From the NCBI GenBank assembly GCA_947567595.1, contig CANOMQ010000018.1, forward strand, positions 1-64,000: a DNA stretch of 64,000 nt, read 5' to 3'. The notes beneath the pieces are model-generated. The model was not told the origin of the DNA, did no database searches, and saw only the letters and a program-made list of their open reading frames with translations. Origin of the DNA: an uncultured Lachnospiraceae bacterium. Lineage in GTDB: Bacteria > Bacillota > Clostridia > Lachnospirales > Lachnospiraceae. Numbering within the stretch: position 1 is the first letter of the stretch; each line of letters opens with the position of its first letter. Positions 33,429 through 64,000 of this stretch are shown here, one piece after another. The translations under genes were made by a program, and so were the position numbers.

Positions 33429-33456
33429 TTGACAAATTTTTTAATAATGCTATAAT
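33429..33456 (+). promoter_or_regulatory. Promoter of the contractile injection locus
   Basis: TTGACA (33429-33434) and TATAAT (33451-33456) are perfect matches with a 16-base spacer. It lies in a very AT-rich 300-base interval that otherwise holds no gene. The first gene of the locus starts at 33544. Confidence 0.88.
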
Positions 33457-33543
33457 GCTGATAAAAGATTAATGATAAAAAATATTTGGCTGAAATGCAT
33501 AACAAAATCTGTCAGAGTCAGGAGCAAACAGAGGTGACACAGC

Positions 33544-35376
33544 ATGAAAACAAAGAGAATAAAGATAATATGTATGGCGTTGTGCTCAATATTTATTCTG
33601 ACAATATGCCTGCACTTTCCATGTATGGCATCGGAAGAACAAAAGTTTGATATAAACAATGGCGAAGTTGTATTTATGCTTGACACAAGCGTTTCCATGA
33701 ACGGACATGACAAGGACAGGCTTGCGGTAGATGCAGTCAGACAGGCATTTTACAGCCTGCCTTCAAATTATGAAGCAGGTCTGGTCGCTTACAATACGGA
33801 AATACAGGCGAAAATTCCTTTCGGGACAGAACAATCACAGTGGGATGAAAACCTTAATGCAATTGAATATACCGGATACACCAATGCCGGTGAAGCGTTA
33901 AGGCAGGCTGTGGAGCTGTTTTCCGATAAGGAGAAAACGAACCGGTATGTCATCATCTTAACAGACGGGGAAATTGATATGCCTGACGCACAGCAAAAAG
34001 AGGCTTCAAGACTTCTATATGAAAAAATGGCAAGAGAGGCAAAAGAAAAAGGCATTGTCATATATATTATCGCATCAGGCAGCGAATGGAATGGAACAGG
34101 AGCCCATATTTTTGACGGTGCGGGGCTGACGGACGGAACAATTTATTGGGAGGGGCAGTCAGGGAGCATATCGGAAATTATGAAGCGCATTCTGTATGAC
34201 CGTATGAATTTTCCGAGGAGCGCCGTGGGAGCGTCAAAAGGAAACGGCGGAAAATTAAGTATGGAACTGCCTGCAGCGGCAGCGGAACACGCAAGAGTTG
34301 TCCTGACGGCAGAACAAGGGTTTGAGAATATAAGCGCAGAGTATGCCGCTGAAAATGGAACGGTCATAAATGGGAAAAAATTTGCGGTAGTTGATATTGA
34401 AAAGCCTTTGGGACAGAAAATAGAAATATCATACGAATCGACTGACGTGTCGGATGCCGAAGCATATCTGACAGTTGATTATGCGGCGGAAATAAAGACA
34501 CACATTACATACAGGACAGAAGAAGATCCGACAGCACAAAAGCAGGATGTCCAAAATGCGCAGACGGCATATAAACATATTGCAGACATTGAAATCTGGT
34601 TATCGGATACGCAGGGACGAAATGATGATTTATGGGACAGCGCATATTATGAAGGAAGACAAATTTCTTTTACAATAAATGGGACTCCGGCAGTGGAAAC
34701 AATTCATAAAGGAAGAATTTTGCATTCCATACAAATAGACGGGATCAGTGAAGCAGCATTGGAACTGGATGTCGCTAATCTGTCAGAACGGTTTGCAATA
34801 CGGCAGCCGTGCACCTTGACGTTCTCTCCTCCGGCTGATCCCGTGCCGGAGCCGAATTACATGCCGCTGTGGACTATTTTAGGCGTACTGGTATTAATAC
34901 TGACTGTCATTTTGATTGTGCTGGCGAAAAAGAGCAGGGAGACCGTGATTTATATGGCAAATCCTTCAGGAAATGAGGCAAAGAAGGAAGAAATAAAAGG
35001 CTGCACTTACACGGGAAAATTAAATATGTATGTTATTCAAACCCAGACAGGGCAGGATGTTGCACCGCAGACATACAGGCTGTTCGGCAGGCAGAATACA
35101 CGGATTACACTAAATCAGATTTTGAATTCATGCGGCATTAAGTTTGGGAAGATTGGCGCGGAGGACATTAGCTTTTATGCGGGACCGGATAAGGCGCTGA
35201 TTGTCATGGACCAGTCGGAAAAGTGTACGGTGCTCCGCGGAACGGAGATTTTGAAGAAGGGAATGGGATATCCTGTATATTATAACGGAAAACTGACTGT
35301 TACGTTTGAGGACGGAATAACGGAAATGGAAATCCATTATAAAAATCTAAAACCAAGCGAACAGCAGAATATATAG
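33544..35376 (+). CDS. VWA-domain membrane protein with FHA-like cytoplasmic tail
   Basis: The 610-residue product has a signal peptide (cleavage near C-M-A-S, residue 29), then an extracytoplasmic von Willebrand A domain. Its metal site is complete: D-T-S-V-S-M near residue 43, Thr in G-Y-T-N-A-G, and Asp in L-T-D-G-E-I-D. A beta-rich part and a single membrane segment (about 440-460, L-W-T-I-L-G-V-L-V-L) follow. The 130-residue C-terminal cytoplasmic part looks like a divergent FHA domain (Y-R-L-F-G-R-Q-N-T... R-G-T-E-I-L-K-K-G-M). This would join an outside sensor to cytoplasmic phospho-signalling. First gene of the locus; role inferred from the context only. Confidence 0.8.
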   Translation: MKTKRIKIICMALCSIFILTICLHFPCMASEEQKFDINNGEVVFMLDTSVSMNGHDKDRLAVDAVRQAFYSLPSNYEAGLVAYNTEIQAKIPFGTEQSQWDENLNAIEYTGYTNAGEALRQAVELFSDKEKTNRYVIILTDGEIDMPDAQQKEASRLLYEKMAREAKEKGIVIYIIASGSEWNGTGAHIFDGAGLTDGTIYWEGQSGSISEIMKRILYDRMNFPRSAVGASKGNGGKLSMELPAAAAEHARVVLTAEQGFENISAEYAAENGTVINGKKFAVVDIEKPLGQKIEISYESTDVSDAEAYLTVDYAAEIKTHITYRTEEDPTAQKQDVQNAQTAYKHIADIEIWLSDTQGRNDDLWDSAYYEGRQISFTINGTPAVETIHKGRILHSIQIDGISEAALELDVANLSERFAIRQPCTLTFSPPADPVPEPNYMPLWTILGVLVLILTVILIVLAKKSRETVIYMANPSGNEAKKEEIKGCTYTGKLNMYVIQTQTGQDVAPQTYRLFGRQNTRITLNQILNSCGIKFGKIGAEDISFYAGPDKALIVMDQSEKCTVLRGTEILKKGMGYPVYYNGKLTVTFEDGITEMEIHYKNLKPSEQQNI

Positions 35377-35404
35377 CGATATACAAGAAAAAGGAGGACT
35401 TCAA

Positions 35405-37588
35405 ATGGGAGACACAATCAGACAGACGAACAGAACCATGCTGATGGAAGAGGTAAATCCTGAAAAACTTGACTTTCTGACACTTGTAGGAGATGTCAGG
35501 GGGATGGAAAGCCTTTCAGATGACAAGATTAAGGAAATCCACGATCAGCTTTTGGTACGCAGTTTTGATGAAATGCTGGAGAAATTTGCACCGACAGTAT
35601 ACTGTTACTATGATGCAAACAATCAGAAGGTGGCATATACATTAAAGAAACCGGAAGGAATTCCGGAAAACATGCTGACGGAAATACCGCTGAACCGGAA
35701 GAACGAATATTTGGGGATGCTGATGTCCATGGTGGATACAAAGAGATCAGAGGGAACGATCAACGCGGACTTTAAATTTGAAAAACTAACGGACATGATT
35801 TCCCCCAAAAAGGTTATGGAGGAAATCAGGCAGAACCGTAAAGAGCTGCAGTATACATATGCACAGTATGCCGAGCTGGAGGACGGTGCTCCGCAGAAGC
35901 TTGATTTGGCGGACAAGTTAAATGTCATGTTTGAGGAGGCGAGCGCCAACTATAACAATGTCATGGCAATGCTCCCCTTAGCCATTGAAGACATCAAGAC
36001 GCGTCTTCTTTTGGGCGACAGCGGGGAAAAGAAAGACAATTCACCGCTTGCACTCGGGGTTTTGAGCATGGGGGCAGAAGGAGAGCTGCGCATTTTGGAG
36101 GCTCCCAAGGTGGAAACAACCGCGCTTGTTGCCGTAGATGATAATGCCAATACCGGTCTTATTGAAGCGTTGAAGGAAGATTATAAAACCCTGAATGAGG
36201 AAAGCAACGATTACGTGGAGGCGCTTGTTGCCAGAACATTCTGTCCTCTTACTTCCACGATGGAGAGCAGGATTGACCAAGAGAAGGAGGTTGCAAACTA
36301 TAATTCCTATTTGGAGTTTTATAAAGAATCAAAAGATGCGTTTATCAAAACAGTAAAACCGCTGATCGAAAAGCTGCTCGGAATTTGGTGCTATTTTGAA
36401 CAGTATCCGCAAAAGATAAAAGGAATGCGCCCGTCCCTTGTCATCACCAATGTTTCCAATGACATGATGGCAAAATCAAGCAATATTTCCAGACTGATTA
36501 CTTATCTGAATACCGTGAATGCGAAAAATGAATTCAGCAACACGGTATGGTATTCCATTGTGCCGTCAGTATCACTGGATCAGCACAGCAAAATGAAGCT
36601 CACAAGGGAGCGCTTTAAGGGAAACAGCGCGGCAATGAAGACGGATGTCAACAGTGTGGAATCCCTCGTCCGCCTTTTGGATGTGTTCAAGGATTACGGG
36701 GTGCAGTGCTTTTTCAGCTATGAGACGGGGGATACGACAACCTTTAACACACTGGCGACAGAAGGAATTGAAAAATATGAGGAGCGGTGCGCGCCTCTGA
36801 TGGGAAAGGCATTCAGTGAATACGCAATCCCGTGTCTTCCGAATTTTACGATTATACCAAAAGAGAAATCCGGAGTGGTATTGGACAGCCGTATGGTCAT
36901 CAATGAGAACAATGCGGTAGAGCTGTCCAAGGAAAAAGAAGACATCATGAAGCTTTGGATTGACGGTGTTTATGTAGGAGCCGCTTATGTGGCGGCAGGC
37001 ATTGTTTCCGCGTACCAGTGTCCGGAATATCTAAAGGACCGTTTCGGAAAGGCAGGCGTGGATATGCAGCTGCCCGGTGTCCGTTTCGACATTGAGGCGG
37101 ATGACCATTCACTGGCTGTCCGCACAATGATGTCAAAAGAAATTACGGGATTTACCAATTCGATAAAGGCGGACATCAACCGTAAAAACTTTGGATTTGT
37201 ATTTTCTTCCGAGAATGCATCTTATAAAGGAAATAACATCACAAACATTATGATTTATAAGAGCAGGAACCTGATGTCGGACGGATATACGTTTGAGCCG
37301 ATTTATAAGACGCAGGTAACGACTTACATAGAACGGATCCTGCGGCACGCCACGGGAGATTTCAAGGAAGATGCGATTGTCCAGTTTTTCTCGAATAATC
37401 CGCGCAGCCAGAAGAGCGAATGGTTATCGAAGCGGGAGTGCATCAATGCCGTTTTGGGAAAAGGGGACGATATAGAGTATTTCATTGATAATGAAAACGG
37501 ATACTGCACGCTGAACATTACGTTCAACGGAAACGTGAAAAATCTCGAAGTGGAGATAAACCGTTTAAATGCTGCTAACAGAGCGTAA
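35405..37588 (+). CDS. TssC-like contractile sheath protein
   Basis: The 727-residue product is cytoplasmic. Its C-terminal two thirds follow the TssC sheath pattern as I know it from Bacteroidota-type T6SS: P-L-T-S-T-M-E-S-R, N-T-V-W-Y-S-I-V-P-S-V, E-S-L-V-R-L-L-D-V-F-K-D-Y-G-V, G-V-Y-V-G-A-A-Y-V-A-A-G-I-V-S-A-Y and a final beta-strand end (Y-C-T-L-N-I-T-F-N-G-N) that would link subunits. It is longer than typical TssC (about 450-500), so the extra N-terminal 200 residues may stand in for the small sheath subunit TssB, which was not found. Strong AAGGAGG site. The two tube genes follow. Sheath call is by pattern, not by search. Confidence 0.75.
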   Translation: MGDTIRQTNRTMLMEEVNPEKLDFLTLVGDVRGMESLSDDKIKEIHDQLLVRSFDEMLEKFAPTVYCYYDANNQKVAYTLKKPEGIPENMLTEIPLNRKNEYLGMLMSMVDTKRSEGTINADFKFEKLTDMISPKKVMEEIRQNRKELQYTYAQYAELEDGAPQKLDLADKLNVMFEEASANYNNVMAMLPLAIEDIKTRLLLGDSGEKKDNSPLALGVLSMGAEGELRILEAPKVETTALVAVDDNANTGLIEALKEDYKTLNEESNDYVEALVARTFCPLTSTMESRIDQEKEVANYNSYLEFYKESKDAFIKTVKPLIEKLLGIWCYFEQYPQKIKGMRPSLVITNVSNDMMAKSSNISRLITYLNTVNAKNEFSNTVWYSIVPSVSLDQHSKMKLTRERFKGNSAAMKTDVNSVESLVRLLDVFKDYGVQCFFSYETGDTTTFNTLATEGIEKYEERCAPLMGKAFSEYAIPCLPNFTIIPKEKSGVVLDSRMVINENNAVELSKEKEDIMKLWIDGVYVGAAYVAAGIVSAYQCPEYLKDRFGKAGVDMQLPGVRFDIEADDHSLAVRTMMSKEITGFTNSIKADINRKNFGFVFSSENASYKGNNITNIMIYKSRNLMSDGYTFEPIYKTQVTTYIERILRHATGDFKEDAIVQFFSNNPRSQKSEWLSKRECINAVLGKGDDIEYFIDNENGYCTLNITFNGNVKNLEVEINRLNAANRA

Positions 37589-38087: not shown

Positions 38088-38516
38088 ATGTCATACAAGG
38101 TAACGGTAGAAGGTATGGAAAGTTTTGAGATTGCAAAGGAATGCGTAAGGAGTGTCAGGTTTTCCACGGATATACCCTTGGATTCCAATGCAAGGACAAA
38201 GGATGTCGGAAGCACTCTGACACTTACGGGAAGAATTCTGACGGCAGTGGACGGGGATCCGTTTGACAGCACCAGAAAGCTTGCGCTGTGGTCAGCAGTT
38301 CCGGCTGAGAAGGCAGACTGCTACAGAAAGGTAACAGTGGAGCATATTGCGGCAGGAATTATGGAGCGCAAATATTATTTCCCGAATGCGTTTGTCGTGG
38401 ATTACAAAGAAGATTTCGGCGACGCGGAGGGAACGGGAACGTTTACACTGGTTATTAAGCAGAAAAAAGATAAACTGAATATGATAACGGTGGAAGGCGG
38501 TTATCCGGCTACTTAA
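38088..38516 (+). CDS. Hcp-like inner tube protein, copy 2
   Basis: The 142-residue product aligns along its length with copy 1: D-S-N-A-R-T-K-D, L-A-L-W-S-A-V-P-A-E-K-A-D-C-Y-R-K, and F-P-N-A-F-V-V-D-Y. The N-terminal half differs more. Having two tube proteins suggests either a mixed tube, or one main tube and one adaptor ring at the base or cap. It has the same strong GAGGAGGTAAC site. A terminator follows. Confidence 0.75.
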   Translation: MSYKVTVEGMESFEIAKECVRSVRFSTDIPLDSNARTKDVGSTLTLTGRILTAVDGDPFDSTRKLALWSAVPAEKADCYRKVTVEHIAAGIMERKYYFPNAFVVDYKEDFGDAEGTGTFTLVIKQKKDKLNMITVEGGYPAT

Positions 38517-38584: not shown

Positions 38585-38920
38585 ATGGAAAATCTATACG
38601 ACATTTTAGGCGTCCGGCAGGACGCTTCCGATGCGGAAATAAAAAAGGCATTCCGCACACTTTCCAAGAAGTATCACCCGGATGTAAATCCGGGAAACAA
38701 AAAAGCGGAAGAGAAGTTTCGGGCGGTTTCAGAGGCATATGCCATATTGCAGAATCCGCAAAAGAGAAAAGAATATGATAAAAAGCTTGCACGATTCTTT
38801 GGATTTCATCCAAAATCATCGGATGTAAATCCGGAACAGTTTCAACGAACAGAGAAAACAAAAACAAATCCGATTGATATGACGGATTTGTTTGAAAAAT
38901 ATATGGGGATACGGAAATAA
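38585..38920 (+). CDS. Small J-domain (DnaJ-like) protein
   Basis: The 111-residue product is a J domain (residues 1-65: [21 protein letters not shown]) with the complete HPD motif, plus a short tail. It should stimulate an Hsp70; the locus itself encodes an Hsp70-like protein at 55325. It has no zinc-finger or client-binding domain, so it is a specialised co-chaperone. The ribosome site is weak (AGAGATAAAA). Confidence 0.9.
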
Positions 38921-38939
38921 GAGGCAGAGGAGGTTCGGT

Positions 38940-39497
38940 ATGAATAAAAAACGTGCAGTCGATTTTGCAATTGTTTTTATATGTTTAGCGCTGCTTCTTA
39001 TAGTTTATGTATATCCCGGACGCATAAAATACCATGAGCCGCTTATGTGGATATCGGGCGGGGGTGCAGTTTTTTTTCTGATCATGGCATTCATGGATAC
39101 AGATGACAGAACACGCCCGGGAAGAACAAAAAAGAACGGACTGCCTTCGGAATCGGGCATGATTACGGAGCTGGTTCTGCTCAGTGAAGAGGATACGCAA
39201 TTAAGTGTCTGGGAGCTTTACGGAAAAACAGCGGTCGTGATCGGCCGTGACGTGAAAGAAAATCAGGTCGATATTGATATGAATACAAGTCCTTATGCAA
39301 GCATGGTAGAAATTGAGCATGCGGTTATGAACTATTCTTCAGGGAACTGGTATATAGAAGATTTGGGCAGTAAAAATGGGATTCAGATAAAGAAAGCGGC
39401 GGACGATAAAGTATACCGCCTTTCGTCAGACACACCCTGCAGGGTGGAGCGCGGGGATATTCTTTATATCGGGCTCAACCGCCTGCTGCTGCGCTGA
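38940..39497 (+). CDS. Membrane-anchored FHA-domain protein
   Basis: The start was placed at the ATG at 38940 behind GAGGAGG, giving 185 residues. Two membrane segments (about 8-25 and 36-52) are followed by a cytoplasmic FHA domain: A-V-V-I-G-R-D-V-K, then I-E-H-A-V, W-Y-I-E-D-L-G-S-K-N-G-I and R-G-D-I-L-Y-I-G. FHA domains bind phosphothreonine. This resembles the Fha component of the T6SS threonine-phosphorylation switch. It lies between the J protein and a second FHA gene. Confidence 0.88.
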   Translation: MNKKRAVDFAIVFICLALLLIVYVYPGRIKYHEPLMWISGGGAVFFLIMAFMDTDDRTRPGRTKKNGLPSESGMITELVLLSEEDTQLSVWELYGKTAVVIGRDVKENQVDIDMNTSPYASMVEIEHAVMNYSSGNWYIEDLGSKNGIQIKKAADDKVYRLSSDTPCRVERGDILYIGLNRLLLR

Positions 39498-39542: not shown

Positions 39543-40070
39543 ATGGGTAATTTGCTTCGATGCCAGAACGGTCATTTGTTTTCATCCAGAAGATACGGGA
39601 CGGTATGCCCCTACTGCAACATAGAAACCGCGACAGAAGAAAAACAGGGGATGGCGGGAAAAAACGATGAGGAAATAGAGGCGCTGCTGCTTGCTCAGGA
39701 AATCTCCCCCGTATGCGGATGGATTGTCTGCATATCGGGACCGCGGCAGGGAAAAGGGTATGAAATCAAGTCCGGAAAGAACTTTGTCGGACGGGCTGAC
39801 GACATGGATATTCAGATATTGGGAGATAATAAAATATCCCGCAGAAATCATGGCGTAATCGTGTTTGATCCAAAAAAGAAGGAAACAGTCCTTCTTCCGG
39901 GGGACAGCAACGGGCTTGTATATCATAACGATGCCGCGGTATATACTCCCACGGTTCTAAATTCCTATGATGTCATTGAAATGGGGGACAGTAAATTCGT
40001 GTTTGTACCGTTTTGCGGGGAAAATTTCATGTGGGAGGATAATCAGGTTCCGTCAGGGGGGAGCATATGA
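39543..40070 (+). CDS. Zinc-ribbon FHA-domain protein
   Basis: The 175-residue product has an N-terminal Cys set (C-Q-N-G-H and C-P-Y-C) typical of a zinc ribbon, then an FHA domain (N-F-V-G-R-A-D-D-M-D-I, K-I-S-R-R-N-H-G-V-I). It should be a cytoplasmic phosphothreonine reader. Its stop codon overlaps the next start by 4 bases (ATGA at 40067), so it is coupled to the phosphatase gene. Confidence 0.88.
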   Translation: MGNLLRCQNGHLFSSRRYGTVCPYCNIETATEEKQGMAGKNDEEIEALLLAQEISPVCGWIVCISGPRQGKGYEIKSGKNFVGRADDMDIQILGDNKISRRNHGVIVFDPKKKETVLLPGDSNGLVYHNDAAVYTPTVLNSYDVIEMGDSKFVFVPFCGENFMWEDNQVPSGGSI

Positions 40071-40918
40071 CAATTCCGGAATACATATCGGCACTGCTGT
40101 GTACCGTTGGTCTTATGATGGTGACTCTGCGTTTTTGCATGGCAGGAAACAGGAACGCTTCCCGGGGTGGAAGGCACCCATACTGGTGTGAATGCGGCGC
40201 CAGCAAAACCATAGGGACAAGGGAAGTGCAGGAGGACGAATACGGCATACTGGAAACGCAGGAGGGCGTGATGGCGGTGCTTGCCGACGGAATGGGAAAG
40301 CATTACGGAGGAAAAATCGCAAGCCGCGCGGCAGTGGAAGTGTTCAAAGATATTTTTGATGACGGGAACGCGTTTTATAATCCGCAGTATTATCTCCGCA
40401 AGGCGTTTCAGGGAGCAAACAGGGAAATCCTCAGCCTGATTGAAGACGGATATGGACAGGCCTGTGTTGCGGCAGTTCTGATAAAGGACAACAGATTATA
40501 CTATGCGTCAGCGGGAAACGTGAAGATAGCCGTATACAGGAATAAGGAACTGGTGCCCGTGACGGTGGGACATACGATAAGTATGCTGGCAAAAAAACAG
40601 TATGCGGAAGGAAAACTGAGCCGTCAGGACGCGGCGTCCCTTATGGAGCATCACCGCCTTTATAATTATGTGGGACAGGACGGCTTCCATGACATTGAAT
40701 TTTTTGATACGCCGATTGTACTAAACGGCGGAGAATATATCCTCCTGATGTCGGACGGCATGTATGAGACGGTTCGGTGGAAAGAGATGGAGGACTGTCT
40801 GGAGCAGGAGGGAACCTGTCAGCAGAAAGCGTTTGTTCTCGTGGAACGGGTTAATCAAAACGATTCCGAGGATAAGGACAATGCTTCCGTGGTAGTCATA
40901 AAGATAAAAGGGACGTAA
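40067..40918 (+). CDS. Membrane-anchored PP2C protein phosphatase
   Basis: The 283-residue product has one N-terminal membrane segment (about residues 6-26) and a cytoplasmic PP2C domain with its metal ligands: Q-E-D-E-Y-G, V-L-A-D-G-M-G, L-L-M-S-D-G-M-Y-E and D-K-D-N-A-S-V-V. It removes phosphate from Ser/Thr, and would be the opposing enzyme to a kinase in an FHA switch (PppA-like role in T6SS). The kinase is not in the window. Translationally coupled to the FHA gene upstream. Confidence 0.92.
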   Translation: MTIPEYISALLCTVGLMMVTLRFCMAGNRNASRGGRHPYWCECGASKTIGTREVQEDEYGILETQEGVMAVLADGMGKHYGGKIASRAAVEVFKDIFDDGNAFYNPQYYLRKAFQGANREILSLIEDGYGQACVAAVLIKDNRLYYASAGNVKIAVYRNKELVPVTVGHTISMLAKKQYAEGKLSRQDAASLMEHHRLYNYVGQDGFHDIEFFDTPIVLNGGEYILLMSDGMYETVRWKEMEDCLEQEGTCQQKAFVLVERVNQNDSEDKDNASVVVIKIKGT

Positions 40919-43553: not shown

Positions 43554-43566
43554 GAGGATATTTGTA

Positions 43567-47783: not shown

Positions 47784-47821
47784 AACAAGCTGTACGGATT
47801 TTGAAAAGGAATGATTGGGGT

Positions 47822-53412: not shown

Positions 53413-53424
53413 GGAGGATTGGTC

Positions 53425-55188
53425 ATGAAAAAGCAGTTTTCAATATTGTTCGTCTTTATAGTCTGCATTATCAGCATTATGGAATCTGCTGCATGTAATG
53501 GTACTGGAGCTGATACGAATACCGGAAACGATGAAAGAAATAAATCAGTCATAGAGGATTCATGTATTCAGGAAAGTAGCTCTGCCAAAAATACTGAAAT
53601 TGCATTGGAAGAAACCAAGCCTGTTCCGAAAATGGATGCTTTGGAGAATTTTGGAAGATATCTTGAAAAAATAATTACAGAAGGCAGAAAGACCGAATTG
53701 GATTCTCATATCATATCAACAAGGCTGAATATGGAGGAAGCAGCGCTTTTGGCGGAAAAGTCGCCGTTATTGGAGCATATCAGGTATTATGCAGAAGACC
53801 AGCTGACAATCGTTACGGGAGGAATCTGCATTCTTACGGCGGATATTAACGGGGATGGAATTGATGATGTAATTGAGTATGGTCCTGATGAAAACGGTTA
53901 TGAAAACGGTTATAGTGCAAATATGCTCAACATTTATTTGGGAACAGAAGACGGAGGCGTTGTTTTGTCCTATTCCCAGCTTTTATTTGATACACGGGCT
54001 AGATGGACAGATCCAATAGAGGTTGTAAGATATGAGGAAGAAACATATCTTCTTTTTATGTACGGCATGTACCAAATTGTGGGAAATTCGGGCATTAATG
54101 CATATAGGATTTCCGATGGTGTGCCAAGGGATAAATTGAAACTGGATTATATATGTAGTGGTGTCAATGTGGTGATAACGGATAACAAAGACGCATATGA
54201 TACTAGATTTATAGAAGAGAACAGCATATCGCTGTACCATAGGGCATATCCTTTCCATTGTGACGTTTCATGTGAGAGAGTGGATTATGGCAGTGGGGAA
54301 AAAAAGGGGGAAAACTCCGATGAATTATATGATAAGTATGTGGAAAAATACACCGCAGAGCAAAAACCGTATGTGGAAAAATATGCTGAAAAAATTTACT
54401 GGTATAATATCAGTAATATCTCAGATTCATATGAGAGTGACATCAATAACAATGGAATTACGGAAAAGTATGTAAAAGAAGTCAAACCCCTTTGGTTGCC
54501 TGAATTAGGTTTTCCTAAAATAGGATATAGTGCTGGATTACCGTTTATGACGGGGGAGTATTATGGAATCCATGAGGGCAGATACGGACTGATGTACTAT
54601 ATTGAATCTGAAGGAGAAGAAACAGACTTCTTTAAAATGTGCGGGCTGGATATTTGGGAAAGGGAACTGACTCCTCAGTATTTTTGGGTTGAGCAGACAG
54701 AAAAGGGTAATATTACATACATTACCTTTCAGGATGAAAACGAACACAAACAGTATATTGAGGGATATTTCATACAGGGTGATTCGTATGAACGAGTAAT
54801 CTCCGCCGAATATATTCCATCTATAGAATGTAGTATTAACTATGAAGTTATAGAAGAATCTGATAATGTTGGCTATATTGTTCACCTTTCAAAAGACAGA
54901 AAAAGCCTTGAGTTTGAATGGAACGATAGTAATGGTCAGGATAAGTGTCTGAATCAAACCATTCGGAGTCTGATAGAAAAAGAGATTGAAGCAACAGATT
55001 TTGAAGGTGGGGAATTTGAAGCAGTACAATATTATCCAAAAGAGGCCACGAAGGAAAAATTGATTGTGGATTATATGATTTTTTATTATGCCCCATGGGC
55101 GGATACCATGATAGAAAAACATTCAGATTCCTTTCGGATATTCATAGATTTGTTGACAAGGGAATGCATTAAAATAGATGAAGATTGA
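53425..55188 (+). CDS. Lipoprotein with EF-hand-like repeat, probable immunity protein
   Basis: The start is the ATG at 53425 behind AAGGAGG. The 587-residue product has a lipoprotein-type signal peptide ending S-A-A-C. An FG-GAP/EF-hand-like motif (D-I-N-G-D-G-I-D-D) is near residue 140, and D-I-N-N-N-G-I-T occurs later. The layout is loosely similar to the anchored protein at 50926. Surface exposure and position right after the GH19-like effector fit an immunity protein. It could also be a wall-binding protein. Confidence 0.6.
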   Translation: MKKQFSILFVFIVCIISIMESAACNGTGADTNTGNDERNKSVIEDSCIQESSSAKNTEIALEETKPVPKMDALENFGRYLEKIITEGRKTELDSHIISTRLNMEEAALLAEKSPLLEHIRYYAEDQLTIVTGGICILTADINGDGIDDVIEYGPDENGYENGYSANMLNIYLGTEDGGVVLSYSQLLFDTRARWTDPIEVVRYEEETYLLFMYGMYQIVGNSGINAYRISDGVPRDKLKLDYICSGVNVVITDNKDAYDTRFIEENSISLYHRAYPFHCDVSCERVDYGSGEKKGENSDELYDKYVEKYTAEQKPYVEKYAEKIYWYNISNISDSYESDINNNGITEKYVKEVKPLWLPELGFPKIGYSAGLPFMTGEYYGIHEGRYGLMYYIESEGEETDFFKMCGLDIWERELTPQYFWVEQTEKGNITYITFQDENEHKQYIEGYFIQGDSYERVISAEYIPSIECSINYEVIEESDNVGYIVHLSKDRKSLEFEWNDSNGQDKCLNQTIRSLIEKEIEATDFEGGEFEAVQYYPKEATKEKLIVDYMIFYYAPWADTMIEKHSDSFRIFIDLLTRECIKIDED

Positions 55189-57946: not shown

Positions 57947-57957
57947 GGAGGGTGAAT

Positions 57958-58731
57958 ATGCAGAATTTGTACCCGTTGTTTGAAAGGAACCGGATTTTGA
58001 AAAAAGAACTGCTTTGGTCGCTGCGGGATTACGCTTTTGGCCAGCTCCGTTTGGAATACGGGGAATATGCTGCAGGAATGCTGCAGGGATGTGATGTCAG
58101 GGTGGAGGAAAACAGGATTGTCGTCAGTCCGGGTATCATAAAATGGAATGGATTTATCTTTTTGATGTGCGAGGAGGAACGCATCGGATATGAACCCTCA
58201 GAGGGATTCACGTCGGTAAAAATGCGTTTTTCCACGGAACAGAATTCACCGGATTATGTCCTGCACACAATGAAACTGGTTTCAGATAAACGTATGGATT
58301 TAGCCGACAATGAGTTTGAAATATGCCGTTACAGGCTTCAGGAGGGCGCTGAGCTGAGGGATACGCATACCGATTTATGGGATATGGATACGGAATACAA
58401 TACACTCAATTATATCCATGCCACATGGGGAGGACTTGGGGGGCGTTCTATTGCGCCTGCGGTGAGCAGACGTTTTGCAAGGGAAATTTTAAAAGCGGAC
58501 AGTCCGCATCCCGAGGATATCAGATTTGCATATTTATGTTTAGGGCAAACGGGAGCCGTACCGGGGGAGATTTTAAGGGATTATCTGACAAGAAGGAATC
58601 AGGAAAAGAGAAGTATATTCACAAATGAGGATATATTCACAAAAATGTGTGAAGTGTTAAATAAAGTCAGAACATGCACGGAAAACAGACAGCAGGAACG
58701 AAGCGGCAGAAGGCAGATTATTGTGTACTGA
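57958..58731 (+). CDS. Unknown locus protein, candidate baseplate component A
   Basis: The start is the ATG at 57958, 6 bases after AAGGAGG. The 257-residue product starts with a helix and then a beta-rich region (C-D-V-R-V-E-E-N-R-I-V-V-S-P-G-I-I-K) that recalls phage tail-fibre or baseplate beta-sandwich domains. The C-terminal part is helical. No signal peptide. It follows the Hsp70-like gene by 11 bases and heads a block of three coupled genes. The baseplate idea is inference from position and this local pattern. Confidence 0.6.
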   Translation: MQNLYPLFERNRILKKELLWSLRDYAFGQLRLEYGEYAAGMLQGCDVRVEENRIVVSPGIIKWNGFIFLMCEEERIGYEPSEGFTSVKMRFSTEQNSPDYVLHTMKLVSDKRMDLADNEFEICRYRLQEGAELRDTHTDLWDMDTEYNTLNYIHATWGGLGGRSIAPAVSRRFAREILKADSPHPEDIRFAYLCLGQTGAVPGEILRDYLTRRNQEKRSIFTNEDIFTKMCEVLNKVRTCTENRQQERSGRRQIIVY

Positions 58732-58754
58732 AAATGCAATAAATGAGGATATCA

Positions 58755-59993
58755 ATGAAAGAAGAGAAAACCTTTGATTACAGAAACTACATACAGAGCC
58801 GGCTAAAGGAAATCAATGATTTGGATGAGCGCAGAGAGGCGCGGGAGCTGCTTTTGAATAGTCTGGCGCATATTTTTGAATGGACGGAAGCCAAGTATGC
58901 GGAATTGGAGCAGCGGATTCAGGATGAATTGAAGCTGCCATGGCAGTATTATAATGTTTTCATGACAATTATCAAACGCGGGGATTATGATGCCATCAAT
59001 CCTTTTTGGCATCCTGTGTGTGTGGAAGATGTCAGCCCTGCTCCTAAAACGGAATACCGTACCGTTTTTCTCATGGCGGATGAGGGGGGCTTCCGGGAGT
59101 TCCTTGCACAGGGAACGGTGGAAGGCGTTGATGAATCGGACGGACATCATATCCGCTTTCGTATAAGAACATGTGAACGATATGGGGAACGCATGAAAAC
59201 CTTATACCGTCTGTTTGCGGGCAATCATATCCCTTGGCAGACTGTGCACATGGGGTATGCGGAGCGTTTCTTTGATTTAGTGCCGGAAGAGGACGTTTTG
59301 GCTGGCAAAACTATCCGGTTTCTATGGGGGAAATGGGAAAAGTATGTACATGAGGACATGCTTCTGCTTTGGAATATAGAACGGTTTATGATGCAGTCGC
59401 AGGAATACAGGCATCCCTGTCTGGACGAGGCAATTTACGAACATATCTATTATCTTGGAAGCAACAGGGACGAAATGGACGGGTATCTAGTGGAAACAAA
59501 CGATGACATTTTATCCGTCCGTTTTGAAGAGAATAAAATTCTGATCAAAACGCAGCAGGAAACATTGGAAGATGTTTTTCTTTACAGATTGTATCAGGGA
59601 GCTCAGGGAAGCTCTTACGGGTATCATTTTCCTGTCTTATCTAACTGTAAAAAAGACAATTTGGCGGTAAGGTATCTTCAGGAAACGGGAAATTTTATTC
59701 AGACGCCGATGGAGCTGTACAGAAAAATAGAAGAGCTTTCCGCAGGGTATCCTGTCAGGGTAACGGGGTATGAAATTACGGACCATGCAGAAGGCACTGT
59801 TATGGAAGGGGATATGAACAGGCATATCGGCATGCAGTTATTTTCAAATGATAAAAGAAAAATACTTCTTTTTCGGTTTCACAGGGAGGCAGTAACGCAC
59901 GATGCTTATTTATATGAATCCCAAATCCGGTATATCCTTTCACAGTTGCAGCTGGAGTTTTTGGAATACCGGTGTATGGGGGTATGGGTATGA
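58755..59993 (+). CDS. Unknown locus protein, candidate baseplate component B
   Basis: The start was placed at the ATG at 58755; an ATG at 58743 is possible. The 412-residue product is acidic and soluble, beginning K-T-F-D-Y-R-N-Y-I-Q-S-R-L-K and with many W, Y and F residues. I do not recognise a family. Its length and place suggest a TssF/G- or TssK-like role. Its stop codon overlaps the next start by 4 bases, so the two are translated together. Confidence 0.55.
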   Translation: MKEEKTFDYRNYIQSRLKEINDLDERREARELLLNSLAHIFEWTEAKYAELEQRIQDELKLPWQYYNVFMTIIKRGDYDAINPFWHPVCVEDVSPAPKTEYRTVFLMADEGGFREFLAQGTVEGVDESDGHHIRFRIRTCERYGERMKTLYRLFAGNHIPWQTVHMGYAERFFDLVPEEDVLAGKTIRFLWGKWEKYVHEDMLLLWNIERFMMQSQEYRHPCLDEAIYEHIYYLGSNRDEMDGYLVETNDDILSVRFEENKILIKTQQETLEDVFLYRLYQGAQGSSYGYHFPVLSNCKKDNLAVRYLQETGNFIQTPMELYRKIEELSAGYPVRVTGYEITDHAEGTVMEGDMNRHIGMQLFSNDKRKILLFRFHREAVTHDAYLYESQIRYILSQLQLEFLEYRCMGVWV

Positions 59994-60682
59994 ATTATGC
60001 ATGGGAAGCCGTTCTTTTGGCAGAAAAGAGTAAAAAAGACCGTGACAGCCTCCGGTTCATAGAGGCCGCCTGCCCGAGTCCTTATATTGAAGTGTCTGTA
60101 ACTGACCTGAATGCACAGACGATAGAGGGGGACACAATAGAGATTAATCCGTTATACCGGTTTGAAAAGATGTTTGGAAGGCTGTTTGATAAAAATATAA
60201 CGGACATGCGGCAGACGCGCGCGCTGCTTTTTGATGTCTGTATGCACTACGTTGTACAGCTTGATTTACGGGAAGGACTTACGAAAGAAGATTTTTATGA
60301 AAGCCGGATTGCCGTTGACATTCAAGGGGGAATATATGGCGAAGCTGCCCGGAAACGGTTTAGGCTTTTTCGAAAACCGGAACAGAAAATTATTATACAC
60401 GCCTGCTTAATGCTTATGAAGTCGGAAAATTATATGATGAGTTTTAAAACGGCAGTGACAGGGATTTATCCGCATGCGTGTATTTATGAGAATAATGAAA
60501 CTGCGTATGAACTGTTGGTGTATCTGGGGGCTGATGAAACAGCTGAGGAACGGGAACGGGCGGCGTTTCTCAGGGAAATGTTTCTTCCGATACAGGAGAC
60601 GGTGCATTTCTTTTATGAGCATCATTTTGGGGTGATTGGCGTGGAGGAAACGATGGTGGTTGATGAGATGGTTTTGTTTTAG
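59990..60682 (+). CDS. Unknown locus protein, candidate baseplate component C
   Basis: The start is the ATG at 59990 in an ATGA overlap with the previous gene; upstream in-frame starts would increase the overlap. The 230-residue product starts M-N-Y-A-W-E-A-V-L-L-A-E-K-S and is soluble. Segments Y-R-F-E-K-M-F-G-R-L-F-D and Q-L-D-L-R-E-G-L-T-K show a mixed alpha/beta protein without a known family. It is the third of a coupled block and should act in the same complex as the two proteins upstream. Confidence 0.55.
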   Translation: MNYAWEAVLLAEKSKKDRDSLRFIEAACPSPYIEVSVTDLNAQTIEGDTIEINPLYRFEKMFGRLFDKNITDMRQTRALLFDVCMHYVVQLDLREGLTKEDFYESRIAVDIQGGIYGEAARKRFRLFRKPEQKIIIHACLMLMKSENYMMSFKTAVTGIYPHACIYENNETAYELLVYLGADETAEERERAAFLREMFLPIQETVHFFYEHHFGVIGVEETMVVDEMVLF

Positions 60683-60714: not shown

Positions 60715-61854
60715 ATGGATGAATATACTAAAAAACGAATAGAAAGAGAAAAAAACAAAAAAATTAATGAAATGATAGCTTCCGAATTGGCAGATGAAAT
60801 AATACCGGAAAGTGATGTGGAAGCAGCCAGAGAATTGTGTTTGGAATATGGCAGACGGGATACTGAATATTTAGTGGGTGGAGCAATTCTTACCTGTGAT
60901 AAAGCTACCATAGGACCCAATACGGTGGGAGAAGAAACTATCAACTTTTTGTCAGACCCCAACGGCAAAGAAAGGAAAAGAACACGGTTAAAAGTTTCAG
61001 AAAACGCGACGGAATTGAATGGAGGAAAAGCGGCAACGGTAAAGGACCATCAGATAGATATAAACATTGCTCCTTTTGAATGCAATTGTAAAACTCTATT
61101 AACGGAAGAAGAAAAACAGAAAATTATAAATAGTTTAGAGGAATGTGAAATACATGGAACATGCAGAAAACTAATGAAGCTGAATGATGACTGGGAAAAT
61201 ATGATTAAAAAAACCAATTATTTTTCTTTTAATTATACAAATGAAAACCAGGAAACAGAAGAAGCAGAAGGAATTACAATGTTGTCAATGTTATTTTGCA
61301 GTCACGGGGGATTGATAACTCCGGTAACTTCAGGGCAGAGAAGATATTATAAGCAAAGGGATAAAGAAGAAGATATTGCAGAGGGGTTATATACGGATGA
61401 AGATTTTGAACATTTGGTAGCCACACTGGCAGGAGAAGCTAATTCATACAGGGGAATGGTGGCAGTAGGATATGAAATTCTGAACAGATGTAAAAGAGAT
61501 GGAAAAAGTATAAAGGAAGTGGTTTCACCTAAAGGGCAATATACTGGGTTTAAAAAAGAACATTTAGGTAAAATTTCCGACGAAAATGCAATAGATGCGG
61601 CGATAGCAGTGCTAAGAAATGAGGTTGAAAATCCAATTGGAAATATTACGAATCATTTTGGAAGATATGAAGGATATGATTTATGGTACGAGAAAAATGC
61701 GTGTACAGACTTAATCATAATAAATGGAAATGTATTTTATGAGCCATATGGTGCAGTACATAATAAGAAAGCGACAAAAACGGCAGATGCAATTGTAATA
61801 TATGATAGTGCAAAGAGGAAGTGGTTATATGATGGAGTGGTTAAGACATCCTAA
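60715..61854 (+). CDS. DUF4280 PAAR-like tip protein fused to SleB-type hydrolase
   Basis: The 379-residue product has a 50-residue N-terminal helix and then a DUF4280 (PAAR-like) domain: L-V-G-G-A-I-L-T-C-D-K-A-T near residue 55, and the end motif L-F-C-S-H-G-G-L-I-T-P-V-T-S-G-Q near residue 200. After it comes a cell-wall hydrolase domain of the SleB/CwlJ (Hydrolase_2) type: L-V-A-T-L-A-G-E-A-N-S-Y with the catalytic Glu, V-A-V-G-Y-E-I-L-N-R, and G-Q-Y-T-G-F. It would sharpen the spike and cut peptidoglycan. Unlike the other effectors it has no hydrophobic N-terminus. The next gene overlaps its end. Confidence 0.88.
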   Translation: MDEYTKKRIEREKNKKINEMIASELADEIIPESDVEAARELCLEYGRRDTEYLVGGAILTCDKATIGPNTVGEETINFLSDPNGKERKRTRLKVSENATELNGGKAATVKDHQIDINIAPFECNCKTLLTEEEKQKIINSLEECEIHGTCRKLMKLNDDWENMIKKTNYFSFNYTNENQETEEAEGITMLSMLFCSHGGLITPVTSGQRRYYKQRDKEEDIAEGLYTDEDFEHLVATLAGEANSYRGMVAVGYEILNRCKRDGKSIKEVVSPKGQYTGFKKEHLGKISDENAIDAAIAVLRNEVENPIGNITNHFGRYEGYDLWYEKNACTDLIIINGNVFYEPYGAVHNKKATKTADAIVIYDSAKRKWLYDGVVKTS

Positions 61855-62770
61855 AATAATTAAAATAATAATAGTATCGGTAGGAATATTCTGTTCCTGC
61901 GTGCTTTTTATGGGAACGTTATATGTGGCGGCATCGGACAATAAGGATGCACCAAATGAAACGGGGCAGGCATATATTAGCCTGGAGAAAGCAGAAAACA
62001 AATTTGAAATAGGAATGTTGGATTTGCCAAAGGAGATTCGCAGGGAACTTATATTTTACCAGTGGATAATGGAAGCGTTAGGCTGTTACGCCGCTGAGAG
62101 TGGAGACTGGGAAGTTTTTTACGTTGACATAAAAAGAGATATATTATATGGAAACGAAAGGTTTCGATTAACAGAGACGTTTCGTGGAGAGGATATAGAT
62201 ATAAAATCATGGGATTATTCAATAAATCAGAAAGACATAGTGCAGTTTGGACAAGATAGCTATCAATTTAGGATAGAGGGAGCAGAACAGACACTTTATG
62301 CAGAGATTAATCTGAAAGAGGGGGTAGTACATCTGTATCCAGAGAGCGAGGTGGTTATTCTTTATGGACTGGGCAATGATGAGGCTTATAAATTGATTAA
62401 GAGAAATGAAAACAATGAAATAGTATATTATCCGGACTTTTATGTGGAGCCTGACTGGGATGACATGGAGGTTGTTGATGACTATTTTGCTGGAGTATCT
62501 CTTGATGAAGTGCAAAATTTGGATTATCTTAAAATCCCTGATGATATGCATTTTAATCAGTCAGTTTACCTGAGTGTTGCAAGCATTTTGAAGAGATATA
62601 TAGAAGAAAACCAGATTGAAGATGTGTTTTATTATGATGCAGAGAAAGACAATATTACAGGTGTTACAAATATGATATTTACATGTAGGCTTCGTGGGAA
62701 AACGCGCACGCTTTATATTGATATAGACGCAGTCAATATGAAATGCCATGTATATGAAGTGGAGGAGTAA
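61829..62770 (+). CDS. Signal-anchored protein, probable immunity protein
   Basis: The start was placed at the ATG at 61829 (ATG at 61832 is possible), which overlaps the SleB-type effector by 26 bases. The 313-residue product has a signal anchor (about 9-35) and an extracytoplasmic part with two similar halves. The end, T-L-Y-I-D-I-D-A-V-N-M-K-C-H-V-Y, matches the end of the next protein, so the two are paralogues. Topology and overlap fit an immunity role. Confidence 0.65.
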   Translation: MMEWLRHPKIIKIIIVSVGIFCSCVLFMGTLYVAASDNKDAPNETGQAYISLEKAENKFEIGMLDLPKEIRRELIFYQWIMEALGCYAAESGDWEVFYVDIKRDILYGNERFRLTETFRGEDIDIKSWDYSINQKDIVQFGQDSYQFRIEGAEQTLYAEINLKEGVVHLYPESEVVILYGLGNDEAYKLIKRNENNEIVYYPDFYVEPDWDDMEVVDDYFAGVSLDEVQNLDYLKIPDDMHFNQSVYLSVASILKRYIEENQIEDVFYYDAEKDNITGVTNMIFTCRLRGKTRTLYIDIDAVNMKCHVYEVEE

Positions 62771-62772
62771 AA

Positions 62773-63339
62773 TTGAAAAAACGATGGAGAGATGTAATGG
62801 CAGGCTTTATGATAGGAATTCTTGTTTTCCTGGTGGGGAATGTTTTGCTGTGCAGAACAGATGAAAATGCAGGAGAATATTTATCAAAGATGCAGCAAGT
62901 ACAACAAGGCGAATGTTCTTCTGAAGAGGAAACGCAGCAGGCAGAAGATAAAAACGAAGCGCCAAAAGAGGCGGACAAGGATACAAAACCACCCCAAGGA
63001 TTTCGCATATCCGGGAATATGGAAATCCCGCAGGGCTTTATAGAAGAGATTATGCTGTATCAGTATATAGAATACGGCGTAAGGAAATACAATGAGGATA
63101 AAGGCAAAAATAACAGATATTCTGTAGATATTCATGAGGATATGCTGCCGTATGGTACTGAATTTGCCATGAAAACAGCAGGCGGAAAACCATATAAAAC
63201 GGATCTGGCGAAAGAGCTGCTTCCGGAACTGTCAGATAATATATTTAATTTTATTCTTCATGGACAGGATGAAACAAAGTATATATCAATTGATACCTAT
63301 AATATGAAAATTTATTTATATGACATGATAGTAGAGTAA
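62773..63339 (+). CDS. Signal-anchored paralogue of the preceding protein
   Basis: The start is TTG at 62773, 6 bases after GGAGGA. The 188-residue product has a basic start (K-K-R-W-R-D), a signal anchor (about 9-26), a charged linker rich in Glu/Lys and a C-terminal domain ending K-Y-I-S-I-D-T-Y-N-M-K-I-Y-L-Y. It equals about one half of the upstream protein, so it may come from a duplication. It could protect against a related effector. Confidence 0.65.
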   Translation: MKKRWRDVMAGFMIGILVFLVGNVLLCRTDENAGEYLSKMQQVQQGECSSEEETQQAEDKNEAPKEADKDTKPPQGFRISGNMEIPQGFIEEIMLYQYIEYGVRKYNEDKGKNNRYSVDIHEDMLPYGTEFAMKTAGGKPYKTDLAKELLPELSDNIFNFILHGQDETKYISIDTYNMKIYLYDMIVE

Positions 63340-63390
63340 GGAAATTCACGGAAATGTTGTTTGGATATATTATTAAGGAAGGAGCAAACT

Positions 63391-64000
63391 ATGGCAGTTC
63401 AGATTATGAACCAACAATTACAAGTCAAATGCAGATTCAATCTTCTGCATATACTGGAATGCAGTATCCACAGTAAATACGGTGAACACACGAAAGCAGA
63501 AATTAAGGCTGCCGTAAAAGGTGAGGAAGCAAAAGCTGTTTTAAATAATGCGGCAGAGGAAAAAATTGAAATATTCGGCAAAGACACTGATACCTCAATA
63601 GAGCAGGTTCTTTTTGCTGGAAGCATTCAGTGCGTTACAATCATGGAAGAAGGTCAGTATACGACGATTACCCTGAATGCCGTTTCCAATACATGGAAGA
63701 TGGATATAAAGAGGAGATCCAGATCGTTTCAAAATCCAGAGCTGACTTATAAAAAGGTGGCAGAGGCCGTTGCGCAGGAATATGAAGCCGCTGTTATGTG
63801 GAATATCCCTGACAAAAAACCGGAACAGCCTCTGATACAATATAAGGAAACGGATTACCAATTTTTAAAGAGGCTGTTAAGCCATTTGCAGAATGATGTG
63901 CTGACAGGGGATTTTTCTGATAAAATAAGTATTTATGCGGGGCTGGGAAAAGGAATAAAGAAAACGGCAGTTGATTTGGCTCAAATCAACTATGCAGTCA
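63391..64000 (+). CDS. VgrG/gpD-like spike protein 3 (cut by window end)
   Basis: The ATG at 63391 follows AAGGAAGGAG and the frame is open to the window end (203 codons). It matches spike 2 closely in layout: I-K-R-R-S-R-S-F-Q-N-P-E-L-T-Y, then I-Q-Y-K-E-T-D-Y-Q-F-L-K-R-L. It is the hub part of a third spike, beyond which the OB-fold and needle should lie. Its presence shows that the locus continues to the right. Confidence 0.85.
   Translation, partial: MAVQIMNQQLQVKCRFNLLHILECSIHSKYGEHTKAEIKAAVKGEEAKAVLNNAAEEKIEIFGKDTDTSIEQVLFAGSIQCVTIMEEGQYTTITLNAVSNTWKMDIKRRSRSFQNPELTYKKVAEAVAQEYEAAVMWNIPDKKPEQPLIQYKETDYQFLKRLLSHLQNDVLTGDFSDKISIYAGLGKGIKKTAVDLAQINYAV

What the first reader, a model, noticed from the sequence alone, without database searches (positions are those of the whole stretch)
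33429..64000. Type VI secretion-like contractile injection locus in a Gram-positive bacterium
The locus combines a TssC-like sheath (35405), two Hcp-like tubes (37637, 38088), three VgrG/gpD spikes (46395, 47822, 63391), a DUF4280 PAAR-like tip (60715), FHA and PP2C regulators and muralytic effectors. This set is typical of T6SS but the host lacks an outer membrane. No holin/lysin release cassette is seen and no TssJLM-type membrane complex, so delivery may differ from both T6SS and tailocins. The motifs are seen in the sequence; the system assignment is inference.
Basis: partly seen in the sequence, partly recalled or inferred. Interest (0 to 1): 0.92.

Follow-up and report, generated by a model that had tools for sequence, protein, structure and literature searches.

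The report
Contractile-type injection machine in Gram-positive bacteria
This gut bacterium carries a large gene cluster for what looks like a new branch of spring-loaded molecular syringe that would fire wall-cutting toxins at rival bacteria, and it may be the machine that earlier authors suspected behind stray syringe-tip genes in Gram-positive bacteria.

Summary
The locus is real and conserved. It encodes two Hcp/TssD-like tube proteins, three VgrG spikes, wall hydrolases with DUF4280-type tips, membrane-linked vWA/FHA/PP2C regulators, and a 727-aa protein in the sheath position. The nearest named genome is Lachnospiraceae COE1 (100% sheath identity). A scan of one genome per species confirmed 241 places encoding relatives; the 80 kept are all Bacillota, 19 of them Negativicutes. 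Across 21 loci chosen by the sheath, Hcp and f416 are always present, f230 and f258 in 20, an Hsp70-like ATPase in 19; one of its two misses has a true Hsp70 in that slot.

It is neither a standard T6SS nor an eCIS: TssM 0 of 26 genomes over cut-off, no gp25 at the locus in 13 genomes, and only the VgrGs match eCIS models. Machine genes are 91-100% identical to COE1 while the central spike-toxin-immunity cassette is replaced.

Two papers predicted an unknown phage-like system behind orphan Gram-positive DUF4280/VgrG genes; 12 of 13 sheath genomes among 398 have DUF4280, 8 of them within about 20 kb. Best reading: a new lineage of contractile injection system against rivals.

The parts
33544..35376 (+). 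vWA-domain protein with N-terminal hydrophobic segment and a second one near residue 437; candidate membrane-anchored sensor (topology inferred)
   Evidence: VWA_2 2.3e-15; hydrophobic segments at 3 and 437; in 15 of 21 systems
35405..37588 (+). 727-aa putative sheath protein, new family
   Evidence: just before the tube gene in the compared loci, which were chosen by it; no meaningful database match; weak TssB-like segment
37637..38068 (+). Hcp/TssD-like tube protein 1
   Evidence: no Pfam hit itself; same family as 38088
38088..38516 (+). Hcp/TssD-like tube protein 2
   Evidence: TssD 0.005, under cut-off; genome-wide TssD pattern
38585..38920 (+). J-domain (DnaJ) co-chaperone
   Evidence: DnaJ 1.4e-27; in 15 of 21 systems
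38892..39497 (+). FHA protein with two hydrophobic segments
   Evidence: FHA 1.1e-9; segments
39543..40070 (+). soluble FHA protein with a zinc-like CxxC motif at the N-terminus (by eye)
   Evidence: Yop-YscD_cpl 1.3e-8, FHA 1e-4
40067..40918 (+). PP2C-type phosphatase with N-terminal hydrophobic segment
   Evidence: SpoIIE 4.7e-10, PP2C_2 8.8e-9; segment
41070..42908 (+). PP2C-like / TM / TPR protein
   Evidence: SpoIIE 0.002 and TPR_12 1.7e-4, both under cut-off; segment at 256
43014..43553 (+). f200, accessory protein of VgrG-effector modules
   Evidence: family in 15 of 21 systems
43540..44766 (+). effector A: hydrophobic N-terminus, DUF4280-like region (by eye), Glucosaminidase domain
   Evidence: Glucosaminidase 3.9e-13
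44741..45298 (+). candidate immunity A, N-terminal hydrophobic segment
   Evidence: position; segment; no match in 76 kb of COE1
45298..45810 (+). Imm11-family accessory (f177)
   Evidence: family consensus Imm11 3.7e-15; this protein alone has no Pfam hit
45822..46391 (+). f190, Mog1-like candidate effector-loading adaptor
   Evidence: family consensus Mog1 0.02, under cut-off; no real hit alone; comparison with one DUF1795 adaptor negative
46395..47783 (+). VgrG 1
   Evidence: Phage_base_V 3.3e-6; vgr_GE 1.1e-13, under NCBIfam cut-off
47801..49546 (+). VgrG 2
   Evidence: Phage_GPD 7.6e-9
49580..50803 (+). effector B: hydrophobic N-terminus, DUF4280-like, lysozyme-like
   Evidence: Phage_lysozyme 0.0092, DUF4280 0.0093, both under cut-off
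50914..52341 (+). candidate immunity B, N-terminal hydrophobic segment
   Evidence: position; segment
52387..53412 (+). effector C: DUF4280-like remnant and GH19-like hydrolase (both by eye)
   Evidence: no Pfam hit; 27% identity over 70% to the 569-aa DUF4280 protein of COE1
53419..55188 (+). candidate immunity C, N-terminal hydrophobic segment
   Evidence: position; segment
55325..57946 (+). 873-aa Hsp70/actin-superfamily ATPase, core gene
   Evidence: 19 of 21 systems; no Pfam hit itself, HSP70 in 4 of 23 family members, best 0.067; slot held by a true Hsp70 (9.9e-56) in G541
57952..58731 (+). f258, core protein related to the N-terminus of an eCIS-operon protein
   Evidence: profile score 29.4, 0 of 150 shuffles, hhalign probability only 10%; 20 of 21 systems
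58743..59993 (+). f416, core unknown (baseplate candidate)
   Evidence: 21 of 21 systems; no meaningful family match
59972..60682 (+). f230, core unknown (baseplate candidate)
   Evidence: 20 of 21 systems; no meaningful family match
60715..61854 (+). effector D: DUF4280 tip fused to cell wall hydrolase (SleB type)
   Evidence: Hydrolase_2 1.8e-9, DUF4280 8.8e-5; over the DUF4280 cut-off
61802..62770 (+). candidate immunity D1, N-terminal hydrophobic segment
   Evidence: position; segment
62773..63339 (+). candidate immunity D2, N-terminal hydrophobic segment
   Evidence: position; segment
63361..64000 (+). VgrG 3 (continues past the window; complete on the 65,065-bp contig)

Best explanation
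The locus encodes a cell-bound contractile-type injection system of a lineage distinct from T6SS and eCIS, used against neighbouring bacteria. Proposed mechanism: the 727-aa protein forms a sheath around an Hcp/TssD-like tube. The tube is capped by a VgrG trimer and a DUF4280 tip fused to a wall hydrolase, or in relatives by VgrG-RHS or DUF4280-RHS polymorphic toxins. f416, f230 and f258 form the baseplate. The membrane-anchored FHA, PP2C and vWA proteins tether the baseplate and switch firing through phosphorylation. On firing, the tip crosses the cell's own membrane and wall and reaches the neighbour's envelope. Membrane-anchored immunity proteins protect kin from outside. The Hsp70-like ATPase with its J-protein, rather than ClpV, assembles or recycles the machine. 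Shown by calls: gene content, conservation, spike/tip/effector domains, a tube family signal, the Hsp70 slot, cassette swapping. Inferred: sheath fold and contraction, baseplate roles, membrane topology, in-cell firing, target, role of Hsp70.
For: In 21 loci chosen by the sheath: Hcp 21, f416 21, f230 20, f258 20, Hsp70-like 19. The compact form has sheath-Hcp-VgrG-f416-f230-Hsp70-f258 in one run. TssD model: best genome-wide match near a sheath gene in 19 of 22 genomes with a match. VgrG and DUF4280 by Pfam. RHS fused to VgrG or DUF4280. Wall-active effectors; the five proteins encoded behind the window's effectors all have an N-terminal hydrophobic segment. Machine genes 91-100% identical to COE1, central cassette 23-37% (8 genes) or no match (3 genes). 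DUF4280 co-occurrence 12 of 13, nominal p 2.3e-17. f258 related to an eCIS-operon protein. Hsp70 slot filled by a true Hsp70 in G541. No copy of the sheath in phage or plasmid records (best E 7 and 2). TssM 0 of 26 over cut-off.
Against: The 727-aa protein has no sequence match to any sheath, and its TssB-like segment is marginal (2 of 150 shuffles). hhalign's own probability never exceeded about 10% in the comparisons whose values I read. No gp25 and no recognisable TssF/G/K at the locus. Hcp is below the TssD cut-off in 26 of 26 genomes. In 4 of the 12 co-occurring genomes DUF4280 is not near the sheath. One locus, G054, shows no VgrG or f177 in 52.5 kb. Two of the four window effectors begin with lipobox-like segments, which could mean Sec export. 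Nothing here shows expression, contraction or killing.
Confidence: 0.7

Rival explanations
1. It is a true but very diverged T6SS, with TssB and TssC fused into one 727-aa chain and diverged TssD, TssF, TssG and TssK.
For: TssD is the best tube signal; of twelve T6SS families TssB was the best match for the sheath, at a plausible N-terminal position; FHA and SpoIIE-type phosphatase genes also sit in T6SS loci, and PMC3482391 lists firmicutes among T6SS carriers in a table (passages).
Against: TssC, TssB and IcmF models find nothing at the locus; no gp25; f258 resembles an eCIS protein and not TssK; an Hsp70-like gene is core.
Confidence: 0.15
2. It is an extracellular particle (eCIS or tailocin) released by lysis.
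For: Gram-positive eCIS are known (PMC8505568 abstract start in the listing; PMC4122934 passages); f258 is related to an eCIS-operon protein; two VgrGs match eCIS hub/spike models.
Against: Apart from those VgrGs, models of this genome's own eCIS hit no gene of the locus; no lysis cassette noticed by eye (no holin search made); four regulators have hydrophobic segments; effectors come with immunity-like neighbours.
Confidence: 0.1
3. Not contractile: a VgrG/RHS export or surface-display system in which the 727-aa protein is a scaffold.
For: No sheath homology by sequence; lipobox-like N-termini on effectors A and B.
Against: Linkage of the 727-aa protein with an Hcp-like tube in 21 of 21 loci and with VgrG in 18 of 21, in both subtypes.
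Confidence: 0.05

Closest known systems
Type VI secretion system, especially Bacteroidota T6SS(iii), for whose Hcp the TssD model is named (recalled)
   Same: Hcp/TssD-like tube, VgrG, PAAR-like tip, FHA and PP2C regulation, RHS and wall-hydrolase effectors with immunity-like neighbours
   Different: No TssM or gp25, no TssC/TssB detected, a single 727-aa sheath candidate, Hsp70-like ATPase and DnaJ in the operon, single-membrane as well as outer-membrane hosts
Extracellular contractile injection system (eCIS), as on G000:C11
   Same: Hub and spike (VgrG) match by HMM; f258 resembles the N-terminus of an eCIS-operon protein; DUF4280 also occurs beside Bacillota eCIS genes
   Different: The other families of the host's own eCIS, its sheath, tube, gp25 and baseplate included, do not match the locus
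The predicted unknown phage-like translocation system of Gram-positive bacteria (PMC5349215, PMC8651086)
   Same: DUF4280 (PAAR_H2) and Phage_GPD VgrG genes in Firmicutes without known eCIS or T6SS genes
   Different: The passages read name no machine; this report proposes its gene set
R-type tailocins / myophage tails
   Same: General tube, spike and sheath logic
   Different: Sheath family: best E 7 in 50,697 phage records; no meaningful PHROG match for the ten core proteins scanned
Haloarchaeal CIS with a T6SS mode of action (PMC11566945, passages read)
   Same: A contractile system that works contact-dependently from cells outside the Gram-negative world
   Different: eCIS-type genes (Cis2, Cis11 in the passages); nearest Cis11 relatives are in Bacillota; gene sets not compared directly here

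Membership tests
T6SS | TssB/TssC two-protein sheath | tested here: not met
   PF17541 0 of 13 over cut-off and none at the locus; PF05591 0 of 26 over cut-off, none at the locus; only a 35-column TssB-like profile segment
T6SS | Hcp/TssD tube | tested here: inconclusive
   best TssD match near a sheath gene in 19 of 22 genomes with a match, but 0 of 26 over cut-off; profile comparison with Hcp of proteobacterial T6SS negative
T6SS | VgrG spike | tested here: met
   (under the NCBIfam VgrG cut-offs)
T6SS | PAAR or PAAR-like tip | tested here: met
   DUF4280
T6SS | TssM (IcmF) membrane complex | tested here: not met
   IcmF_C 0 of 26 over cut-off, E. coli control positive; TssJ and TssL models were not run genome-wide
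T6SS | gp25/TssE, TssF, TssG, TssK baseplate | tested here: not met
   12 gp25 matches in 13 genomes, none at the locus; profile comparison negative
T6SS | ClpV | tested here: inconclusive
   profile comparison of six core families with ClpV negative; a loose Walker A motif in 0 to 3 members per family; ClpV was not searched genome-wide
eCIS | eCIS sheath, tubes, gp25 and baseplate families (named by eye except gp25) | tested here: not met
   19 models from the host's own eCIS: only its hub and spike models hit the locus, on two VgrGs (5.8e-9, 1.1e-8)
Contractile injection system in the wide sense | contractile sheath fold | not testable with these tools
Contractile injection system in the wide sense | tube, hub-spike and tip genes in one locus | tested here: met
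   the tube call is weak
Prophage or tailocin | relation to phage tail genes | tested here: not met
   for sheath and core; the VgrG hub has phage relatives

The most novel reading that the evidence does not exclude
A separate class of contractile injection machine, powered or recycled by an Hsp70/J-protein pair instead of an AAA+ ATPase, that fires from the cytoplasm of Gram-positive cells through their own membrane and thick wall, with wall-cutting enzymes as the tip. It was carried into, or kept in, the outer-membrane-bearing Negativicutes.
Probability: 0.35. Interest if true: 0.95.

Novelty: new variant of a known kind. Interest (0 to 1): 0.86.

Why it matters
Papers of 2016 and 2021 pointed to PAAR-like and VgrG genes in Gram-positive bacteria without a known machine and speculated about a phage-like translocation system (PMC5349215, PMC8651086; passages read). 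This locus supplies a concrete candidate gene set, found here in gut Lachnospiraceae, Selenomonas, Pelosinus and Paenibacillus. It makes testable how a contractile weapon could work without an outer membrane and without TssM, and whether an Hsp70 can stand in for ClpV.

Tried and rejected
TssC identity of the sheath: rejected at sequence level. TssB kinship: suggestive only. Kinship of f190 with a T6SS DUF1795 adaptor: not shown; shuffles score as well. f258 as TssK: not supported. f416, f230, hcp, Hsp70-like, f190, f200 and sheath against this genome's eCIS families: noise level (sheath best 24.2 with a non-sheath family, eCIS sheath second at 20.7). PDB sequence searches gave chance-level hits for sheath and f230 and none for f416 and the Hsp70-like protein. 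The first hhalign run printed nothing; either no pair passed my filter of 20% probability or my parser failed. I repeated comparisons by raw score, with shuffles. My draft said that eCIS models hit nothing in the locus; a re-check showed that they hit two VgrGs, and the text was mended. Crude hydrophobicity also flags 21 of 100 sheath proteins, so segment counts are only indicative. A strict phosphate-1 motif occurs in 17 of 46 Hsp70-like proteins, against 43 of 46 for phosphate-2 and 45 of 46 for the third motif.

Rows dropped: one search kept 80 of 241 loci. Alignment A1 used the window plus 51 of them. Family alignments dropped proteins outside 0.6-1.5 times the median length. The VgrG HMM left out proteins of 650 aa and over. 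All 21 systems gave sequences to the HMMs, so presence there is partly by construction. Some loci are cut by contig ends or by my fetch (WIN2, G084, Roseburia, Mgla, G088 upstream).
Full report
Where it is. The window is the first 64,000 of 65,065 bases of contig C18 in an unnamed 4.16-Mb genome. The sheath-position protein is 100% identical to that of Lachnospiraceae bacterium COE1. The contig ends just after the third VgrG; COE1 shows what follows, namely further VgrG-effector modules including a DUF4280-RHS protein of 1,673 aa.

What is there. Pfam confirms vWA (2.3e-15), DnaJ (1.4e-27), two FHA proteins, a PP2C, a Glucosaminidase effector, a Hydrolase_2 effector with DUF4280 and gpD/gpV-type VgrGs. 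The lysozyme-like effector is weak, and the GH19-like call for 52387 is by eye only. The 727-aa protein, f416, f230 and f258 have no meaningful match in Pfam, NCBIfam or PHROGs, nor the first three in PDB sequences (f258 was not searched against the PDB).

Conservation. Of 150 genomes of the same family, 10 have the sheath, and of 398 in the phylum, 13; this genome is counted in both. A scan of one genome per species confirmed 241 places, of which 80 were kept. By their titles 19 of the 80 are Negativicutes (Selenomonadaceae, Selenomonadales, Quinella, Pelosinus), which carry an outer membrane (established knowledge), and 6 are named Paenibacillus species. In a quick tree of 84 rows the Paenibacillus rows form one group and the Negativicutes need two changes. 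Twelve of twelve genomes tested also carry f416. In 21 loci chosen by the sheath, Hcp and f416 are in 21, f230 and f258 in 20 (the miss, G084, is a contig end), Hsp70-like in 19 (misses G084 and G541), VgrG and f177 in 18 (misses: G084 and WIN2, both contig ends, and G054), FHA and PP2C in 18, vWA and DnaJ in 15. A compact second subtype in G068, G409 and G541 shows no FHA, PP2C, vWA or DnaJ of these families but keeps sheath-Hcp-VgrG-f416-f230-Hsp70-f258 in a row.

Tube. The TssD model gives weak but place-specific hits: 22 of 26 genomes have a match at E<=1, and in 19 of the 22 the best one lies within 25 kb of a sheath gene of this family (not in G154, G160, G227); none passes the cut-off (compared by hand). 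In this genome the best hit is at the second copy on C35. In Pelosinus JBW45 (G151) it is a longer Hcp-like ORF about 22 kb from the sheath. Such longer Hcp-like proteins of 219 and 250 aa occur in Pelosinus and Selenomonas, like evolved Hcp effectors (inference).

Sheath. The evidence is positional plus one marginal profile match to TssB (35 columns, E 0.038, probability 1.4%, best of the twelve T6SS families compared with it; 2 of 150 column shuffles score as high). TssC and TssB models find nothing at the locus. This is the weakest link.

Baseplate. f258 aligns to the N-terminal region of a 575-aa protein in the eCIS of the same genome with score 29.4 (E 0.003, probability 10%). None of 150 shuffles reaches it (best 23.4), and the other eight families tested score at most 19.9; a second run gave 29.0. 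No gp25 match lies at the locus in 13 genomes; the gp25 of this genome belongs to that eCIS on contig C11 (its other genes are named by eye). Applied both ways, only hub and spike are shared: two eCIS models hit VgrG 1 and VgrG 3 (5.8e-9, 1.1e-8), and the locus models hit only the eCIS spike gene (5.2e-14).

Hsp70. The 873-aa core gene has actin/Hsp70-type motifs (phosphate-2 in 43 of 46; motif names recalled) and weak HSP70 hits in 4 of 23 members. In G541 the slot between f230 and f258 holds a 530-aa protein with HSP70 E 9.9e-56. With DnaJ in the operon this points to a chaperone engine (inference). The abstract start of PMC7182274 (listing) says that ClpB takes part in Francisella T6SS disassembly, so lack of ClpV alone is not unique.

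Effectors and immunity. The window holds four hydrolase-type effectors. The five proteins encoded behind them have an N-terminal hydrophobic segment, as expected for protection outside the membrane (inference). Of five COE1 proteins scanned, four carry DUF4280 (one RHS, one VanY/M15, two with glucosaminidase-like and GH19-like regions by eye) and one is a lysozyme (5e-11) without it. Other relatives carry VgrG-RHS, VgrG-C39 peptidase and DUF4280-AHH nuclease fusions, the AHH score lying just under its cut-off. Against COE1, the 13 machine genes are 91-100% identical (90.6 the lowest). Of the 11 genes of the central cassette 8 match at 23-37% and 3 not at all, and the last cassette is 67-94% identical (within 76 kb of COE1). 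Such swapping is the mark of polymorphic weapon loci (established knowledge).

Link to an open question. PMC5349215 (passages) says that DUF4280 proteins in Gram-positive bacteria raise the possibility of a functional phage-like translocation system. [quoted passage not shown] In two draws of 398 genomes, whose handles agree where listed, DUF4280 occurs in 19, and 12 of the 13 sheath genomes are among them (miss: G541; Fisher p 2.3e-17, nominal because genomes are related). In 8 of the 12 a DUF4280 gene lies on the sheath contig within about 25 kb (G000, G520, G227, G266, G409, G473, G496, G503); in G200, G378, G500 and G543 it lies elsewhere, partly because contigs are short. Of the 7 DUF4280 genomes without the sheath, 5 have genes of the eCIS set near it (4 with at least two families, G470 with one), and G279 and G529 show none on stretches of 14.4 and 4.4 kb. 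Other literature: PMC3482391 lists firmicutes for T6SS in a table (passages); PMC4122934 describes eCIS-type clusters in Firmicutes (passages); PMC11566945 reports haloarchaeal CIS with a T6SS mode of action (passages); passages of PMC9230969 on sheath evolution and a term search of PMC5014421 (no hits) added nothing. Ten searches, of which I saw the listed titles and abstract starts only (lists capped), showed no description of this machine; preprints and most subscription papers are not in that library.

Verdict. A conserved injection locus of the contractile type is likely. It works like a T6SS in payload and logic, fails T6SS and eCIS membership on defining parts, and is best filed as a new lineage of contractile injection system, pending structure and microscopy.

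Noticed in passing
G000:C35:223-14966 (loci L004-L006): A second copy of the core operon (sheath 57% identical) in the same genome, cut at the contig start; the contig also carries ParA-like and TraG-like genes (by eye), so perhaps a mobile element.
   Followed up: partly
G000:C35:15064-20834; upstream of the vWA gene in G149, G022, Mgla and G111: Genes that look by eye like Agr-type quorum sensing (AgrB-like, histidine kinase, LytTR regulators) directly precede the vWA gene in 5 of 19 systems; several others were cut there.
   Followed up: no
G000:C11:70001-94748 (L163, L164): A separate eCIS-type locus coexists in this genome (gp25 by Pfam; other parts by eye), with its own DUF4280 gene at C11:94398.
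   Followed up: partly
window 43540-44766 and 49580-50803: Effectors A and B start with hydrophobic segments ending in lipobox-like LQGC and LTGC; unclear whether they are lipoproteins or use the segment for loading.
   Followed up: no
L168 (Paenibacillus polymyxa plasmid p-YT9A, 1641-26726): A VgrG-DUF4280-VgrG module with a short nuclease-annotated ORF behind it and no machine genes annotated in the 25 kb shown; no plasmid record matched the sheath below E 2.
   Followed up: no
L161:6326-7918:-: A true Hsp70 sits in the slot of the divergent Hsp70-like core gene in G541.
   Followed up: yes
window 31623-32801 (-): BlaR1-type M56 peptidase gene just upstream of the operon (Peptidase_M56 1.6e-22); relation to the system unknown.
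   Followed up: no
G054, loci L025-L027: A locus with the full machine set but no VgrG and no f177 found in 52.5 kb; its spikes may be encoded elsewhere.
   Followed up: no
L047: A MAG titled Paenibacillaceae carries a sheath almost identical to that of Lacrimispora, so the title is probably wrong.
   Followed up: no
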